Shown here one piece after another: positions 35,401 to 38,681 of a DNA stretch of 64,000 nucleotides. This stretch comes from Gammaproteobacteria bacterium (GTDB lineage: Bacteria; Pseudomonadota; Gammaproteobacteria; Steroidobacterales; GCA-2729495). The stretch lies in contig JASLMV010000001.1 in NCBI GenBank assembly GCA_030746435.1, positions 120,170 through 184,169 of the forward strand, in the 5' to 3' direction. The notes beneath the pieces were generated by a model. The model did no database searches. It had not been told where the DNA came from and saw only the letters and a list, made by a program, of their open reading frames with translations. Position 1 is the stretch's first letter. Each line of letters starts with the position of its first letter. Position numbers and translations under genes: made by a program.

Positions 35401-37833
35401 CGCTACAGCGGCGAAGACGACCTGGTGGTCGGCACGCCGATCTCAGGCCGGCAACGCTCAGAGTTCGAAGGCCTTATCGGCTTTTTCCTGAACACGCTGG
35501 CGATCCGCACGGATGCGAGTGGTAACCCGGCGTTCAGCGAGTTGCTTAGCCACGTCAAGGACTCGACCCTCGGGGCGTTTGCCCACCAGGATTTACCTTT
35601 CGAGAAACTGGTCGAGGAACTGCACCCGGTCCGCAACCTGAGCCATGCGCCGATCTTCCAGGTGCTGTTCGTCCTGAACCACCTCTCACGCGAAGAGACC
35701 CGTTTCGGCGACCTGGAAGTGGGCCGTGCACTTTATGATGTCACCTCTGCCAAGTTCGACCTGCAGCTCACCGTCTCGGAACGCCCGGACGGGCTGACCA
35801 CGGCCCTGCTATACAACACGGACCTCTTCAACGAGGATACGGCCGAGCGCATGCTCGGTCATTACCGCGCGTTGCTCGAGGCGATCGTCGCTGAGCCGGA
35901 CACCGGCATCGACGACCTCGCGCTCCTGGATGCACAGGAACGGCAGCAGATTGTGGCTGACTTTAACGCCACGCATGCCGTCTACCCGCACACTTCACTC
36001 GCCGCGCTGGTCGAAGCGCAGGTGGAGAAGACGCCCGACGCGGTAGCGATCGAAGCCGCCGATGCCAGGCTCAGTTATGCCGGGTTGAACAGCCGGGCCA
36101 ACCGGCTGGCGCGGGCGCTCGTTGCCGCCGGCACCGTTCCGGGTTCACGGGTCGGACTCTGCGTCGAGCGGTGCCCGGATGCGCCGGTTGCAATCCTCGC
36201 CGTGCTCAAGGCCGGCTGCGCCTACGTGCCCATCGACCCGGACTACCCGCCCGAGCGCGTCCGCTTCATGCTCGACGACAGCGGCGCGCCGGTGCTGATC
36301 ACGCAGTCTGCGCTCATCGAAACCCTCGGCGAACACGGCGCACAGGTCATCGAGATCGACACCTTCGACTGGGAAACCGGTGACGGAACGAACCTGAACG
36401 TGGACGTGTTGCCCATGAACCCGGCATACGCGATCTATACCTCGGGCTCGACCGGTCAGCCCAAGGGCGTGTTGCTACAGCAAGGTGCTTTGGCCAACCT
36501 GCTGCAGTGGCAGTGCACCCAGCCCGGGCTGGACGTACCCGCCCGCACCCTGCAGTTCGCCTCGTTAAGCTTCGACGTATCTTTCCAGGAACTCTTCAGC
36601 ACCTGGCAGGCGGGCGGCACGCTGGTGATGATCGACGAAGCACTGCGCCGCGACCTGCCCGCGCTGGCGCGGCTGATCGCCGATCGAGGCATCGAGCGTT
36701 TGTACTTGCCCTTTGCGGCCCTGCAACCGCTGGTCGAATGTATCCTTGCCGACGGCCTTACAGACAAGCTCGCCGTAACCGATGTCATCGTCGCCGGCGA
36801 GCAACTGCAGATCACGCCGGCGATCCGTGAACTTTTTGGTGCGCATCCGTCCGTGTGTCTGCACAACCACTATGGCCCGTCCGAGACCCACGTCGTAACG
36901 GCGTACACCCTGACCGGTTCCCCGGATACCTGGCCGGCCTTACCGCCGATCGGTAAACCGGTGGCCAACACGCAGATCTACCTCCTGGACGAGCAGCGCC
37001 GGCCCGTGCCCATCGGTGTGCCCGGTGAACTCTATATCGGCGGTACCCAGGTCGCGCTGGGCTACCTCGATCGCGAGGCGCTCACCGCCGAGAAGTTCGT
37101 TGCCGACCCGTTCAGCACCGCGGCCGGTGCACGGCTGTTCCGCACCGGCGACAGCGCCCGCTACCGGCCCGACGGGGTCATCGACTACCTCGGCCGCACC
37201 GACGACCAGGTCAAGTGGCGCGGCTTCAGGATCGAGCCCGGCGAGATCGAATCTATGCTCGCGACCCACCCGCAGGTGCGCCAGGCCGCGGTACTGTTGC
37301 GCGAGGACGAGCCCGGCGACAAGCGCCTGGTCGCCTATCTCGTTGCCGAACAGGATCAAAGCCCCGATACCGCCGATATCCGCGCCTACGCGAAGCAAAA
37401 ACTGCCCGACTACATGCTCCCCTCCGCGCTCGTCATCCTCGATGCCCTGCCGCTCACTCCCTCCGGCAAGATCGCCCGACGTAAACTGCCCGCGCCGGAC
37501 GGGCGCCGTGCCGCGGACACAGGCGCGTCGTTGCCAAGTCATCCACACGAGCGCGCACTCGCGGAATTGTGGAAGCGGTTGCTTAAAGTCGATCACATCG
37601 CACTGGACGATAATTTCTTCGACCTGGGCGGACATTCCCTGCTAACGATCAGGCTAATCCAGGAAATTAAATCGTTAACGGGTGAGGAGTTAACGATCGC
37701 CGATGTTTTCGAGAATCCCACCATTCGGGAATTTGCGCCGCTGCTCAAGGATGCCGCCTGGCCGGATGCCGACGGGGGCGGTCTCGGTGGGTTACTGCAA
37801 AAAGTGCGCGGGTGGTTTAAGCCAGGCAATTAA
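17281..37833 (+). CDS. Nonribosomal peptide synthetase, six modules
   Basis: A 6850-residue NRPS, the last of the assembly line. Domain order: TubC-like docking domain (residues 1-55), C-A-T-E, then five C-A-T modules. Carrier serines are encoded at 20497, 25069, 28210, 31360, 34474 and 37636. Predicted residues are D-Ser, unknown, Pro-type, Pro, Ala, Pro. The ATG overlaps the upstream stop (ATGA) and is preceded by a strong ribosome site (AGGGAGGAG, 17264-17272), so the start is secure. The C-terminus stops about 65 residues after the final carrier serine; there is no thioesterase, reductase or terminal condensation domain. Release must come from another protein, plausibly the convergent stand-alone thioesterase. 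Confidence 0.98.
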   Translation: MSTSELLSRLREAGIRLSVKDGQLNVSAPKGALNEELRRSLRDRKAELIELLADADSAQRTDDSNIPVADRSQPIPLSFAQQRIWFLEEFEGGSSVYNIPWAMRVRGKFDVVALQAALNDLAHRHESLRTVFVKTDEGPVQEIHDGVELNIDIIKMHGADKATVRRQIESWACKTFDLVTGPLFRVGVVETGSRKHVLVLVIHHIISDGWSLDVLQSELFALYLGHINGKAPELAPLPLQLADYAVWQRDRVNGSEFKQQLDYWKTKLLGAPALLEIPTDRPRPSEQSYAGSHVRRILPAELSNALKNIAKEQNATLFMVLLTAFKILLARYSGQDDIIVGTPIAGRQQTELEGLIGLFLNNLAMRTDLTGNPAFTELLQQVQATSLDAYAHQDIPFDRIVDALHPSRDMSHSPVYQVQFMLQNAPANGSPVEGLEFQHVEFDYGTSKFDLTLATAETEDGLAAEIEYCTDLFDKQSIERILEHFEILLQSIATNPGTGIRDLPIIDEYERTRLLVDWNETAVDYPVDATLQSLLEQQAENSPHAPALVYESTLLTYRELNIRANRLAHWLISQGVEPDDMIGVYMERSVEMVVALLGIIKAGGAYVPLDPDYPEQRLRHMLEDADIRILLTQSHLVAGLPSHAGKVLSLDTASDELGALPEVNPLHRAGPGNLAYVIFTSGSTGRPKGVMNEHHGICNRLLWMQDQYQLDSNDRVLQKTPFSFDVSVWEFFWPLITGATLVVARPGGHRDTDYLCRIICEHAVTTMHFVPSMLQVFLQDGNAGTCTTLQRVICSGEALSHDLQARFFATLDAGLHNLYGPTEAAIDVTYWPCEKDSKETTVPIGYPVANTQIYVVEPNGQPAPVGVAGELWIGGDQVARGYANRPDLTAECFIPDPFSARDNARIYRTGDLTRFRNDGAIEFLGRIDHQVKLRGFRIELGEIEASLDAIADIEQSLVMLREDVSGEKRLVAYLKGGSSLPPDIPAVRDLLKTSLPEYMVPAAFVVLDEFPLLPNGKIDRNALPEPTGSRDVGNEYIPPASAIESILAGIWSDLLRIDRVGIHDNFFELGGDSILSIQIITRAAKSGLHLTPKQVFQHQTIAELVAAVGTARQVEAEQGAITGSADLTPVQRWFFGQPEIDLHHFNQSIRLDLAEYTDPQLLEQALQAIVVHHDALRLTFSRSNEGWTQQFAAIEPADVLGVIDIAGLSGDDRSQRILDAANELQASLQLDSGCLLAAALFDSGAGKPQELIIVVHHLAMDGLSWRILLEDLEHACLTLQDKRPVELPPKTSSFKDWSEHLQEYAASGDLAGETNWWRERFAPEDAAVPVDRAHGENTVASARSIVVSLDSIITEQLLQDVPRAYRTQINDVLLTALGRAWQKWSDSKHLVLDLEGHGREEKFADTDVSRTIGWFTTIYPVHISIDRDEPMGDALKRIKEQLLAIPDRGLGFGVLKYLANSGLQDIATPQILFNYLGQFDQTFDASGLFNLADGPRGYEQSPQRMRSHLLDINCGVYGGRLQVSFSYSENLHTEATIKALGDNFREELEALIGHCVSGQNLGYTPSDFPLACLDQAATDKLVQTYTDIEDIYPITPMQHGMLFHSIFAEESADYLSQVYLTQVVWELEGKLHAGAFEFAWQTVTRRHASLRTSFHQSGVQDPLAIVHRDAAISIHSEDWSGLGEDQQTQRLEKLLADDREQSFDLAKAPLMRLYLLRYSKNNYRFVWSHHHIIMDGWSIPVLLDELFQAYAAALQNTTPQFDPVRSYREYIAWLGRQDRAAAEKYWRASLAGFIAPTPLPGAGKAYRGLQDKSSFAKCFVSLTPEETGTLREAARQQRLTVNTLAQGIWALVLSRYTGEPDVLFGATTSGRPADLENVEAMVGLFLNTLPVRARIEAQSSMRSWMAAIQDDQLTARQHEYASLTDIQGWSEVPRGTPLFHTLLIFENYPDVSSLWEDRNSIRVRDMRALGWTSFPLTASVSVSGQLLLRLAYDTEYFSTQTAERIGAEFSRMLRKVTEDPDVLVRDLLIDESEAGQLKEQPGPTNAFERFQDTALEASLVTRFEVQVERRGNAPAVATRNHRWSYLELNQRANAVAHALIDADIPAGERVGLILGQDAPMLAGLLGALKAGQAYVPLDPHAPAARLRTIINDAGLSALVAAPDHAGLAVELSAGKLPVVSTAGNGEHSLPNPAIAIAPDALAYILFTSGSTGTPKGVMQTHHNVLHHIRTYTNALHLAADDRLSLFSPYGFDAAVMDIYGALLNGACLVPIDIRDEESATDILGQLPELDITIFHSTPTVYRYLFEQENETDLARIRLVVLGGEEARPVDLELFQRLFRPDAIFINGLGPTESTLALQFFADHDTAITGPVIPVGTAVTGTEILLLDENGEPAGSSGEICIRGDYVTPGYWNAPELTAEAFIQDEQGRNSIYRTGDLGRYAPDGQLIFIGRRDAQIKVRGHRVEPGDIEVALAQHPEIERSVVILREDEPGKPRLTGYCVPAPGREPDMGTLRDYLLHLLPDYMIPAAFVMIREIPLTPNGKLDRNALPVPVWEADEETYVAPTTETEQRIAAIWSDVLGVEQVGMHEDFFALGGHSLIATQLMARVRDAVGQELSLRTLFSNPTVAGLCAAVDGTSEPGSTIAIQPHPRNRNIPMSLMQQRLWFLDRFEGDSTAYNIFAAVRMRGELNMSALQSAVNDLVMRHESLRTHFAEQDGKALQVIVAEPDSRIVPGVLTDGSNENISRVVSELARRPFDLEQGPLFETHMLKIGPGEHLLVIRMHHIIGDNRSMQIIYRDLLTLYSMHCGLDTEPLPILPVQYADYAHWQTEMLASEEATQQVDYWREQLTDAPTVLELPTDRPRPLLQSYAGTAASRMLSGELNKALQALGTRHRATLFMVLQAAFSMLLARYSGQDDIVVGTPVAGRKSAELDNLIGFFLNTVVLRTDLSTDPDFRALLEQVRDNTLEAYEHQDVPFEKLVEELQPVRDTSHSPIFQVMFTVLTPPPSPGDFPNLQLEAVNAEFTTAKFDLFMAMTSYDQGLGIHLEYNTDLFDGATIERLLDHFETLLAGIVASPDVPVSQLRLLDEAERQHVLTDFNDSAMETSDTLVHQLVEQQAELRPEEPAVCFGAVTLLYKELNERANRLARALTAAGASPGKLVAVCAERGIETVTGVLAILKAGAAYVPVDPRYPAGRIRTMLDDCKAPVLLTQAALAADLPEHSARVIELDTFDWASGDATNLGVQGESVYAIYTSGSTGKPKGVELTHAGLSNLIQWQGKQPGLDTPARTLQFASLSFDVSFQELFTTWAGGGTLVLVTEDERRDLAGLARFIATDGIERVYLPFAALQPLADAVVNEPGLNFKVRDVIVAGEQLQVTPAVRQMFATLGGARLHNQYGPSETHVVTAYTLEGPPDSWPALPPIGTPVANTQAYVLDANLEPVPVGVPGELYLGGVQVAKGYVGRRELTAEKFVTDPFNKGRMYRTGDRCRFLPDGALAYLGRTDDQVKWRGFRIEPGEIETALADHASVRQAAVLIREDNPGDKRLVAYVVGDGPDPDALRLHLKERLPDYMVPQAFVVLDALPLTPSGKVARRSLPVPDYADAAQSYVAPRTPTEAALTGIWADVLNVERVGIHDDFFALGGHSLLAMHLISRIRDALNEDLPLVDLFSHSTVAELAQQLRGSKAEDEIPRYDRGQPLPMSFAQQRLWFLDVMEPGAVNYNVPFSVRLRGRLDRKALQAAVDGIVARHESLRTTFNEIDNTAVQLIAGSLTVPVEFIEFTDASDADLREKLNGLIAKPFDLRTGPLFRAQVLVIDAEEHILLLSMHHIICDAWSQGLLYSDLAALYREYSENVPSDLPALPIQYADYAVWQRSQAEAVFEAEVDYWREQLDDAPPLLNLPLDKPRPPVETHTGATRSLQLDTQLAERLNALAVSQGCTLFVLLLAALQTLLHRYSGEDDLVVGTPISGRQRSELEGIIGFFLNTLAIRTDASGNPAFNELLARVKDSTLGAFAHQDLPFEKLVEELHPVRNLSHAPVFQVLFVLNHLTHEDAGFGNLSLGTAEYDVTSAKFDLQLTVMEMADGLTVNLLYNTDLFETDTADRMLGHYRTLLKAIVTQPETGIDDLALLDAQEQQRITADFNATHADYPVVSLAALVEAQTARTPDAAAVESGGMMLSYAELNARANRLARALIAGGAEPGSLVGLCAERCLDAPVAILAVLKAGCAYVPIDPDYPAERVRFMLADSHAPVLLTQVPLVDRIGDHDARVICLDTFDWTTGDDANLKTEISPRTPAYAIYTSGSTGQPKGVLLQQEALANLLQWQQSQPGLQEGARTLQFASFSFDVSFQELFSTWQLGGTLIMIDEELRRDLPKLARFVADNQVERLYLPFAALQPLVECILADGLTESLAVTDVIVAGEQLQITPAIRKLFGTLSNARLHNHYGPSETHVVTAYTLEGQPDNWPALPPIGTPVANTQIYVLDTKGRPAPIGVPGELYIGGTQVALGYLDREALTAEKFVADPFREGGRLFRTGDSARYRPGGVIDYLGRTDDQVKWRGFRIEPGEIEAQLTAHPQVRQAAVLLREDEPGDQRLVAYVVPEAGEEIVDADVRAYAKQKLPDYMVPSALVILDALPLTPSGKVARRKLPAPEWQSEEAYVAPRNELEQKLADIWASVLRVEQVGIHDDFFTLGGHSLLAMQLVSRIRDDLELELPLIELFRNGTVAEAAAGLGDSGQEPAIVPCDRTSPPPMSSAQQRLWFLDVMEPGSATYNVPWVANFEGELDRDALQSAVDELVHRHESLRTTFADDKDGPIQLIADQLHLEVEVIDQSDADEDRVNSEVSRLVNAPFNLQTGPLFRVSVIRTGKARCILILSMHHIICDAWSLGIVYHELAALYEQHRTGQQAGLPPLPLQYADYAAWERTHLAGLEFEDQIAYWKDRLYGAPPLLDLPLDKPRPPIETHNGASLSVHLDQALTDKLNGLAVSHGCTLFMLMLTAVNTLLYRYSGEDDLVVGTPISGRRRSELEGIIGFFLNTLTIRTDASDNPAFTELLERVKEATLGAFTHQDLPFEKLVEELHPARNLSHAPVFQVLFVLNHMSREETRFGNLQATNALSNLSAAKFDLQFTVSEVADGLTTSLLYNTDLFERDTIERMLMHFCVLLEAIAEQPDTGIDDLKLLDESERQKLLYDWNDTAFSYPADSTMHGLFEAQAALAPDAIALRTDKTELSYGELNRRANKLATALVGLGIGPDKLVGISIERSAEMVIGMLATLKAGGAYVPLDPAYPPSRVSYMLEDSRAVVLLTQSSLVAGLPKHAAEFICLDEFDWATNDSHSTGPQSAVTASDLGYVIYTSGSTGMPKGVAIEHRNAVALIAWAGEAFTHKEFAGVLASTSICFDLSVFEIFCTLGLGGRIVLVENALELPALPADTGVTLINTVPSAIAELVRMNGVPESVKTVNLAGELLTTRLVNDIYALGTVERINDLYGPSEDTTYSTWTLRERDKPPSIGRPVLNTQAYLLDANKQPVPIGVVGELYLGGSGVTRGYLGREGLTAERYVSNPFGEGRLYRTGDKARYRADGNLEFLGRIDHQVKLRGFRIELGEIETCLEQIPEVKASVAMVREDNVNDKRLVAYLVAEENALLDESSIRATLKKELPDYMVPAAFVILDALPMTPNGKLDRKRLPVPEWQSEHEYVPPRNELEQQLTDIWADVLGVEQVGIHDDFFALGGHSLLAMHLISRIRDALQVELPLISLFNSATVAETALELGVTDHELDIAPCDRHQPLPMSFAQQRLWFLDVMEPGAVNYNVPFSVRLHGRLDRKALQAAGDDIVARHESLRTTFADSEDGPIQIIAESMQLEVEEVRPSGSDEAGIRTELNRLVNEPFDLASGPLFRVWVIEADDDNHILVMCMHHIICDAWSLGIVYQELATLYDNHRLGRPTALPLLSIQYADYAVWQRSQADDVFDKQVDYWREQLDDAPPLLNLPLDKPRPPVETHTGATRVLHLDTQLAERLNALAMSQGCTLFVLLLAALQALLHRYSGEDDLVVGTPISGRQRSEFEGLIGFFLNTLAIRTDASGNPAFSELLSHVKDSTLGAFAHQDLPFEKLVEELHPVRNLSHAPIFQVLFVLNHLSREETRFGDLEVGRALYDVTSAKFDLQLTVSERPDGLTTALLYNTDLFNEDTAERMLGHYRALLEAIVAEPDTGIDDLALLDAQERQQIVADFNATHAVYPHTSLAALVEAQVEKTPDAVAIEAADARLSYAGLNSRANRLARALVAAGTVPGSRVGLCVERCPDAPVAILAVLKAGCAYVPIDPDYPPERVRFMLDDSGAPVLITQSALIETLGEHGAQVIEIDTFDWETGDGTNLNVDVLPMNPAYAIYTSGSTGQPKGVLLQQGALANLLQWQCTQPGLDVPARTLQFASLSFDVSFQELFSTWQAGGTLVMIDEALRRDLPALARLIADRGIERLYLPFAALQPLVECILADGLTDKLAVTDVIVAGEQLQITPAIRELFGAHPSVCLHNHYGPSETHVVTAYTLTGSPDTWPALPPIGKPVANTQIYLLDEQRRPVPIGVPGELYIGGTQVALGYLDREALTAEKFVADPFSTAAGARLFRTGDSARYRPDGVIDYLGRTDDQVKWRGFRIEPGEIESMLATHPQVRQAAVLLREDEPGDKRLVAYLVAEQDQSPDTADIRAYAKQKLPDYMLPSALVILDALPLTPSGKIARRKLPAPDGRRAADTGASLPSHPHERALAELWKRLLKVDHIALDDNFFDLGGHSLLTIRLIQEIKSLTGEELTIADVFENPTIREFAPLLKDAAWPDADGGGLGGLLQKVRGWFKPGN
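17490..21990 (+). other. NRPS3 module 1 (C-A-T-E), D-serine predicted
   Basis: LCL condensation domain (HHIISDG at 17887-17907). Pocket residues DVWHISLIDK differ from the established serine code DVWHLSLIDK only at 299. The carrier is LGGDS (serine 20497). The E domain (about 20640-21990) carries HHLAMDG at 21046, EGHGREE, RTIGWFT and NYLGQFD, so the residue is probably delivered as D-Ser. Confidence 0.88.
22040..25190 (+). other. NRPS3 module 2 (C-A-T), substrate unknown
   Basis: DCL condensation domain (ITPMQHGMLFHSIF opening, HHIIMDG at 22468-22488), matching the D residue upstream. The A domain is of a different lineage from its neighbours: TSGSTGTPKG, NGLGPTES instead of YGPTE, and RRDAQIKVRGHRVEPGDIE near its end. 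Pocket residues read by eye are DAMHVGGLAK, which I cannot assign. Carrier serine codon at 25069. Confidence 0.75.
25225..28320 (+). other. NRPS3 module 3 (C-A-T), proline-type (Gln322)
   Basis: The condensation motif reads HHIIGDNRS (25624-25650): the usual G and W after the catalytic Asp are N and R. The catalytic second His and the Asp are kept. Pocket residues DVQYIAQVVK as in both NRPS2 modules. The A-domain DNA is nearly identical in stretches to NRPS2 module 2. Carrier serine at 28210. Confidence 0.77.
28345..31470 (+). other. NRPS3 module 4 (C-A-T), proline predicted
   Basis: Condensation motif HHIICDA (28756-28776). Pocket residues DVQYIAHVVK, a proline code. Carrier serine at 31360. 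The module is very similar to module 6 throughout the C and A domains, e.g. both start MSFAQQRLWFLDVMEPG and share the VNYNVPFSVRL segment. Confidence 0.84.
31500..34590 (+). other. NRPS3 module 5 (C-A-T), alanine predicted
   Basis: The condensation domain resembles those of modules 4 and 6 (HHIICDA at 31906-31926), but the A domain belongs to another lineage. Pocket residues read DLFNNALTYK, an established alanine code. Carrier serine at 34474. Confidence 0.85.
34620..37760 (+). other. NRPS3 module 6 (C-A-T), terminal, proline predicted
   Basis: Condensation motif HHIICDA (35020-35040). Pocket residues DVQYIAHVVK, a proline code. The final carrier (LGGHSLLTIRL, serine 37636) differs in sequence from the other carriers of this gene and is followed only by a short Gly-rich, basic tail ending at 37833, so there is no cis release domain. 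Confidence 0.84.

Positions 37834-38681: not shown

What the first reader, a model, noticed from the sequence alone, without database searches (positions are those of the whole stretch)
37636..38681. No release domain in cis; stand-alone thioesterase encoded convergently
The last carrier is followed only by a short tail. The only thioesterase lies on the opposite strand and its stop codon shares TTAA with the NRPS stop. If it is the release enzyme it acts in trans and is expressed from another promoter, unlike most lines where TE is fused or in the same operon.
Basis: partly seen in the sequence, partly recalled or inferred. Interest (0 to 1): 0.6.

Follow-up and report, generated by a model that had tools for sequence, protein, structure and literature searches.

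The report
Peptide-releasing thioesterase detached from assembly line
An 18-module bacterial peptide assembly line has lost its built-in release enzyme and almost certainly uses a separate, oppositely oriented gene next to its end instead, while close relatives still have that kind of enzyme fused on, so the switch from built-in to separate can be followed and tested.

Summary
The NRPS gene (17281-37833, +) ends in a carrier domain plus a 31-residue tail. A 283-residue thioesterase (TE) gene (37830-38681, -) shares TTAA with its stop. I read the whole line from its first gene: 18 carriers in six proteins, with no TE or reductase domain in cis. Genome-wide, the only other Pfam Thioesterase over the cut-off is an unlinked RifR-like type II TE.

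The window TE is not type II. It falls with full support in a small type I clade that mixes fused and stand-alone TEs, found in only two genera. Among 40 genomes of the family, this clade and the line occur in exactly the same six. A same-genus species carries the orthologous line with such a TE fused to the last carrier. A second species has the last NRPS part moved elsewhere together with a convergent stand-alone TE. A sister genus has a fused TE without its active-site residues, followed by an active-motif stand-alone TE. The window's terminal carrier is of the TE-facing type.

Best reading: a type I releasing TE acting in trans, transcribed separately. It is a paralogue of the TEs at the homologous site, not the excised copy. 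Function is inferred, not assayed. New variant of a known kind.

The parts
1..10913 (+). N1, six-module NRPS (7245 aa); its start is outside the window at C11:109345 (10825 bases before base 1)
   Evidence: ORF and domain scan
10925..17284 (+). N2, two-module NRPS
   Evidence: 63% identical to its orthologue in G003
17281..37833 (+). N3, terminal six-module NRPS (6850 aa), no TE or R domain
   Evidence: orthologue in G003 carries a fused TE
37555..37737 (+). last carrier (T) domain of the line, of the TE-facing clade
   Evidence: hmmsearch; carrier tree, clade 100/98 with carriers that precede fused TEs
37738..37830 (+). 31-residue C-terminal tail after the last carrier
   Evidence: translation; similarity to the tail in G002 not significant (546 of 5000 shuffles)
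37830..37833 (.). TTAA shared by the NRPS stop (TAA 37831-37833, +) and the TE stop (TAA 37832-37830, -)
   Evidence: sequence
37830..38681 (-). stand-alone type I-like thioesterase, 283 aa; nucleophile motif GYSAGG (Ser87, codon 38423-38421), His256 (codon 37916-37914), Glu114 at the acid position
   Evidence: Pfam, PDB sequence and fold matches to type I TE domains, alignment of motifs, tree
38682..38829 (.). 148-bp divergent spacer between the TE and the methionine aminotransferase; any promoter for the TE would be expected here
   Evidence: sequence; no sigma-70 consensus match
38830..39978 (+). methionine-aminotransferase-like gene, conserved neighbour at the same site in genus g8
   Evidence: NCBIfam NF006569; synteny
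39966..40757 (+). amidohydrolase (CN_hydrolase), conserved neighbour that marks the site in G002, G003 and g8

Best explanation
The gene at 37830-38681 (-) encodes the release enzyme of this 18-module NRPS line. It is a type I-lineage alpha/beta-hydrolase thioesterase that exists as a free protein and acts in trans on the peptidyl thioester of the last carrier of N3. Proposed steps: the full-length peptide reaches the last carrier (shown only as domain order); the free TE recognises that TE-facing carrier (inferred from the carrier clade); Ser87, helped by His256 and an acid (Glu114), takes the peptide as an oxyester (inferred from conservation); the product leaves by hydrolysis or ring closure (not determined). 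The TE is transcribed from the opposite strand, so its supply can be set independently of the synthetase. In evolution the line has exchanged a cis TE for a trans TE: relatives carry fused TEs (active-looking, or lacking the catalytic residues) and stand-alone TEs of one clade at the end of the same line. In the window's lineage the stand-alone copy is a paralogue, not the excised version, of the TEs now at the homologous site.
For: No TE or R domain anywhere in the line, and only two Thioesterase-family proteins over the cut-off in the genome. Best PDB sequence matches are type I TE domains: 7crn 7e-23, oocydin branching TE, FAS TE, EntF; no type II TE is listed at E<=0.01. The other genomic TE matches RifR, BorB-like and SrfAD type II enzymes over its full length. 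The tree of 85 TEs puts type II rows in a 100* clade and the window TE in a separate 100* clade of 8 that mixes fused and stand-alone TEs. The orthologous line in same-genus G003 has the same domain order in 50-67% identical proteins and a TE of this clade fused to the last carrier. In G002 the N3 part has left the site (N2 is followed directly by the amidohydrolase) and lies elsewhere as two proteins with a convergent stand-alone TE of the same clade, at 41% identity; contig composition agrees with one genome. In genus g8 the fused TE lacks the nucleophile elbow (AVGFAA) and the His, and an active-motif stand-alone TE follows about 20 bp downstream at the same site. Clade and line marker co-occur in 6 of 40 genomes, the same six (Fisher 2.6e-7 without correction for kinship). 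The window's terminal carrier groups (100/98) with carriers that feed fused TEs.
Against: No expression, activity or product data. The acid position holds Glu rather than the Asp of EntF-type TEs, and the segment after the first strand is about six residues shorter than in canonical TEs, so catalytic competence is predicted, not shown. Six of six co-occurrence rests on two related genera. G003 has a fused TE and, on another contig without NRPS, a stand-alone TE of the same clade, so members of the clade need not always serve a neighbouring line. No docking element for the TE was identified. The relatives' assemblies are fragmented.
Confidence: 0.82

Rival explanations
1. The TE is a type II, editing thioesterase that clears misprimed or stalled carriers, and release happens by another route.
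For: It is stand-alone and small, as type II TEs are.
Against: It is excluded from the type II clade with full support; its PDB sequence matches are type I domains only; the genome and G002 have a separate conserved RifR-like type II TE (67% identical to each other); the closest clade includes a TE fused to the terminal carrier of the same line.
Confidence: 0.06
2. Release does not need this TE: the chain leaves spontaneously, by a PBP-type cyclase or by another hydrolase, and the TE is a relic.
For: TE-less lines exist: the second line in this genome and in G004 and G001 has no TE either. Another alpha/beta hydrolase lies nearby (42004-43047).
Against: The TE frame is intact, with conserved Ser and His, in every stand-alone member, whereas a fused TE that did lose function (g8) shows a destroyed active site. 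The only beta-lactamase/PBP-type protein lies on another contig. N3 and a convergent TE of the same clade sit together in G002 even though N3 has left its site.
Confidence: 0.06
3. The TE serves the second NRPS line on the same strand (C11:190973-207021) rather than, or as well as, this line.
For: That line also lacks a TE and runs on the TE's strand, about 32 kb away.
Against: Orthologues of that line (about 53% identical) occur in G004 and G001, which have no TE of this clade. Its last carrier is of the internal type, outside the TE-facing clade. Sharing one trans TE between two lines cannot be excluded; it is known for the PBP-type TE SurE (PMC11735501).
Confidence: 0.04
4. The TE is an aminoacyl or acyl shuttle (SyrC/WS20-like alpha/beta hydrolase) that loads a carrier in trans.
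For: Such shuttles are stand-alone hydrolases encoded beside NRPS genes (WS20 described in PMC13320435).
Against: A domains were found for all 18 modules, so no carrier needs loading from outside. The described shuttle WS20 is classed as type II, and this TE is not.
Confidence: 0.02

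Closest known systems
C-terminal type I thioesterase domains of NRPS (EntF TE, 7crn bifunctional epimerising-cyclising TE, SrfA-C TE)
   Same: Sequence and fold lineage; nucleophile elbow GxSxG and late His; acceptor is the terminal carrier (by homology to the fused TE of the orthologous line).
   Different: Free protein on the opposite strand; Glu at the acid position; shorter segment after the first strand (HGEP motif).
KinT, stand-alone ArCP-TE didomain inferred to release kineochelin in trans (PMC13238742)
   Same: NRPS without a cis TE and release assigned to a discrete TE.
   Different: KinT carries its own carrier domain; here the TE is a single domain, convergent with the NRPS, and an orthologous line with a fused TE exists for comparison. 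Both assignments are inferences.
MatP, stand-alone thioesterase in matlystatin biosynthesis (PMC10951976)
   Same: Discrete TE described as releasing an assembly-line product.
   Different: Short line of several discrete proteins with a PKS module at the end; the passage read mentions no cis/trans series.
PBP-type trans-acting TEs (SurE; PMC11735501)
   Same: Stand-alone enzyme releasing an NRPS chain in trans.
   Different: Unrelated beta-lactamase/PBP fold; the window TE is an alpha/beta hydrolase.
Tandem TE termination modules (lysobactin, teixobactin, arthrofactin; PMC8949500, PMC11735501)
   Same: Two TEs at the end of one line, as in genus g8.
   Different: There both are fused in cis; in g8 the cis copy has lost its catalytic residues and the second is a separate gene; in the window only a separate TE remains.

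Membership tests
Type I (chain-releasing) NRPS thioesterase | Sequence kinship with terminal TE domains rather than type II TEs | tested here: met
   Tree of 85 rows; PDB sequence matches; fold ranking led by type I domains
Type I (chain-releasing) NRPS thioesterase | Ser/Cys nucleophile in GxSxG and catalytic His | tested here: met
   GYSAGG Ser87 and His256, aligned with the other active-motif members
Type I (chain-releasing) NRPS thioesterase | Catalytic Asp after the strand following the elbow | tested here: inconclusive
   Glu114 here, Glu in three clade mates, Asp in the others; geometry not inspected
Type I (chain-releasing) NRPS thioesterase | Fused to the C-terminus of the last module | tested here: not met
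   Separate gene on the other strand; clade mates in G003 and G018 are fused. So it is not filed as a classical cis type I TE, but as a type I-lineage TE that works in trans
Type I (chain-releasing) NRPS thioesterase | Releases the full-length chain from the terminal carrier | not testable with these tools
   Needs product analysis or an in vitro assay
Type II (editing) thioesterase | Groups with RifR/SrfAD-type TEs | tested here: not met
   Separate clades, each with full support; no type II match at E<=0.01 among PDB sequences
PBP-type thioesterase | Beta-lactamase/PBP fold (PF00144) | tested here: not met
   The protein is an alpha/beta hydrolase; the only PF00144 protein found in the genome is on another contig

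The most novel reading that the evidence does not exclude
One family of orthologous assembly lines has switched its release enzyme between cis and trans: fused and active-looking (G003), fused but without catalytic residues plus a separate active-motif TE (g8), and no fused TE plus a convergent separate TE (window, G002). The separate TE of the window is a paralogue that displaced the ancestral one, matched to a retained TE-facing carrier, and its opposite-strand expression uncouples release from synthesis.
Probability: 0.55. Interest if true: 0.65.

Novelty: new variant of a known kind. Interest (0 to 1): 0.52.

Why it matters
How a release domain finds its carrier, and whether it can be detached or swapped, is a main obstacle in re-engineering NRPS lines. 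Here nature offers related lines with the TE fused, with a catalytically stripped fused TE plus a free TE, and with a free TE alone, all within two genera. Comparing them would show what a TE needs to work in trans on a long (18-module) line and whether separate expression matters. It also warns annotation pipelines that a stand-alone thioesterase beside an NRPS is not automatically a type II editing enzyme.

Tried and rejected
Type II grouping (rejected). A TE or reductase upstream of the window or in cis (none; genome-wide). PBP-type TE (only an unlinked protein). The idea that the window TE is the excised fused TE of the orthologous line: an AU test rejects a clade of the window TE with the G003 fused TE (p 0.0097) and with the g8 stand-alone TEs (p 0.0039), so it is a paralogue; its pairing with the G002 TE alone is in the best tree but weakly supported (79/22), while the clade of four that holds both is 99/96. 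These groups were tested after the first tree had been seen, so the p values are somewhat optimistic. The idea that the C-terminal tail is a conserved docking helix shared with G002: similarity not better than shuffles (546 of 5000). Service to the second line as the main role (disfavoured because G004 and G001 have that line without this TE). Several literature searches for trans-acting type I TEs gave few precedents; the library is open-access only, so older subscription work may be missing.

Full report
Setting. The window is bases 120170-184169 of contig C11 of a 2.43-Mb genome in 38 contigs, 96.8% complete. The window opens inside an NRPS gene, so I fetched the upstream DNA and read the whole line: A (C11:95193-101108), B, C, N1 (109345 to window 10913), N2 (10925-17284) and N3 (17281-37833). 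Domain scans give A: A-T-Cy-A-T-Ox; B: C-A-MT-T; C: C-A-T; N1: six modules with one MT and one E; N2: two modules; N3: six modules with one E. That makes 18 carriers. The Ox part is a SagB-family dehydrogenase, as in thiazole/oxazole-forming modules (general knowledge). No TE or reductase domain occurs in any of the six proteins.

The observation. The last carrier (N3 6759-6819) is followed by 31 residues and the stop TAA at 37831-37833. On the other strand a TE of 283 residues (start 38681) stops at 37830-37832, so TTAA is shared. The TE matches PF00975. In the whole genome only one other protein is over that family's cut-off, on C35. That one is a type II TE: RifR, BorB-like and SrfAD proteins are its best PDB matches over the full length, it lies beside a sulfotransferase and a TonB-dependent receptor, and its 67% identical orthologue is in G002.

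Type I or II. phmmer against PDB sequences lists only type I domains for the window TE (7crn NRPS TE, oocydin TE, FAS TE, EntF, fengycin TE, Pks13). The AlphaFold2 model (mean pLDDT 80; residues 120-151 are low) is closest to 7crn, EntF and NocB TE domains (Foldseek E 3e-17; Z 24.5 and 24.0). RifR and BorB score lower (Z 18.5-18.7), but all share one fold, so the tree is the real test. In a tree of 85 TEs the type II rows form one clade (100*) and the window TE sits in a clade of eight (100*), all with a short segment after the first strand and the motif HGEP or close to it. Outside this clade the next profile matches fall from 224 bits or more to 131 or less, in 396 genomes of the order and 369 of the class; the clade was seen in only two genera.

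Same line, different release arrangements. G003 (same genus) has the orthologous line on C24: proteins 50-67% identical, the same domain order, and a TE of this clade fused after the last carrier (7132-residue frame; nucleophile motif GYCLGG with Cys). Downstream of it comes the same amidohydrolase as in the window, without the aminotransferase. In sister genus g8 (G018, G011, G023) the end of an NRPS at the same site reads T-TE, then a separate TE on the same strand about 20 bp later, then the methionine aminotransferase and the amidohydrolase. The fused TE there has lost the nucleophile elbow (AVGFAA in place of GYSAGG) and the His, while the separate TE has GFSVGG and the His. The contigs of g8 break within the line; its earlier proteins, including the line's marker, were found on other contigs. 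In G002 (same genus) N2 is followed directly by the amidohydrolase and the other flank genes, so the N3 part has left the site. It lies on another contig of matching composition as two proteins (3724 and 2197 residues), with a TE of this clade convergent to its end, about 55 bp away. Thus the convergent, stand-alone arrangement exists in two species at two different chromosomal places, each time beside the last NRPS protein.

Co-occurrence. Of 40 genomes of the family, the TE clade occurs in G000, G002, G003, G011, G018 and G023, and the line's marker (the T-Ox part) occurs in exactly these six. Fisher p is 2.6e-7, uncorrected for shared ancestry. A second line in the window's genome (C11:190973-207021, also without TE) has orthologues (last protein about 53% identical) in G004 and G001, which lack both the first line and the TE clade. 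The TE therefore tracks the first line.

The acceptor. In a tree of 50 carriers the last carrier of N3 groups with those that precede the fused TEs in G003 and g8 and with the last carrier of G002 (100/98), apart from all internal carriers; one further fused-TE carrier (G018 C190) falls elsewhere. The last carrier of the second line is not in this group. So N3 ends in a carrier of the TE-facing type although no TE is attached. The third-position GC falls from about 0.8-0.9 to about 0.6 just before this carrier and is 0.63 in the TE; only 3.5% of equal-sized stretches of N3 are as low. This hints, no more, that the last carrier and the TE share a history distinct from the preceding modules.

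How the present state arose. The last four modules of N3 are not one-to-one orthologues of those in G003 and resemble other modules of the same line (A domains: m15 and m12 89%, m16 and m18 79%, m17 and m7 66%). The 3' half of N3 was therefore probably rebuilt by internal duplication. The window TE is not the excised G003 TE: holding it with that TE, or with the g8 separate TEs, is rejected (AU p 0.0097 and 0.0039). It belongs with the G002 TE, a stand-alone TE of G003 that lies on a contig without NRPS genes (next to sulfotransferase and polysaccharide-export genes) and a fused TE of G018 (99/96). I infer loss of the cis TE and takeover by a paralogous free TE.

Mechanism and its limits. Shown by sequence: no cis release domain, an intact free type I-lineage TE, conserved Ser and His, linkage and co-occurrence with the line, and a TE-facing terminal carrier. 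Inferred: the TE removes the finished peptide from the last carrier in trans. Not determined: hydrolysis or cyclisation, the docking determinants, and the role of Glu114 as the acid. The opposite orientation means separate transcription; no sigma-70-like promoter, and no terminator between the two genes, was recognised. The tail after the carrier is not demonstrably conserved.

Known relatives. Discrete TEs assigned to NRPS or hybrid release have been proposed: KinT for kineochelins (PMC13238742) and MatP for matlystatins (PMC10951976). The established trans-acting NRPS TEs are PBP-type enzymes such as SurE (PMC11735501). Tandem cis TEs are known from lysobactin and teixobactin (PMC8949500). 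A free type I TE, convergent with its line, with orthologous lines that keep fused TEs, was not found in the papers searched. I class it as a new variant of a known kind, of moderate interest because the cis/trans series makes TE-carrier recognition directly testable.

Noticed in passing
C11:190973-207021 (outside the window, about window 70804-86852), minus strand: A second NRPS line (A-A-T-C-A-T plus three C-A-T modules) also ends in a bare carrier with no TE; orthologues in G004 and G001 end the same way. How it releases its product is unknown.
   Followed up: partly
L039:3207-3926, L041 and L042 (genus g8): The TE fused to the last carrier has lost its nucleophile elbow (AVGFAA) and catalytic His, and is followed by an active-motif stand-alone TE.
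   Followed up: yes
L035:6348-7166 and L040:844-1641: Within this TE clade the two fused members with intact motifs have Cys as nucleophile (GYCLGG, GHCSGA), whereas the stand-alone members have Ser. Few cases, but a possible link between fusion state and chemistry.
   Followed up: partly
window 26280-37500: The last four modules of N3 look rebuilt by duplication from other modules of the same line (A domains up to 89% identical), unlike the orthologue in G003.
   Followed up: partly
L133:501-7760 (G002 C38) and L034 (G002 C152): In G002 the terminal NRPS part has left the cluster site and is split into two proteins elsewhere, together with the convergent TE; the docking-type N-terminus is kept.
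   Followed up: partly
L037:8216-9094 (G003 C135): A stand-alone TE of the same clade lies in a contig with polysaccharide-export and sulfotransferase genes and no NRPS, in a genome whose line has a fused TE; its partner is unknown.
   Followed up: partly
C11:95193-101108 (window -24976 to -19061): The first protein of the line has a heterocyclisation domain and a SagB-type dehydrogenase domain, suggesting a thiazole or oxazole near the start of the peptide.
   Followed up: no
window 37500-37833: Third-position GC drops sharply at the boundary between the last A and T domains, a possible recombination point.
   Followed up: partly
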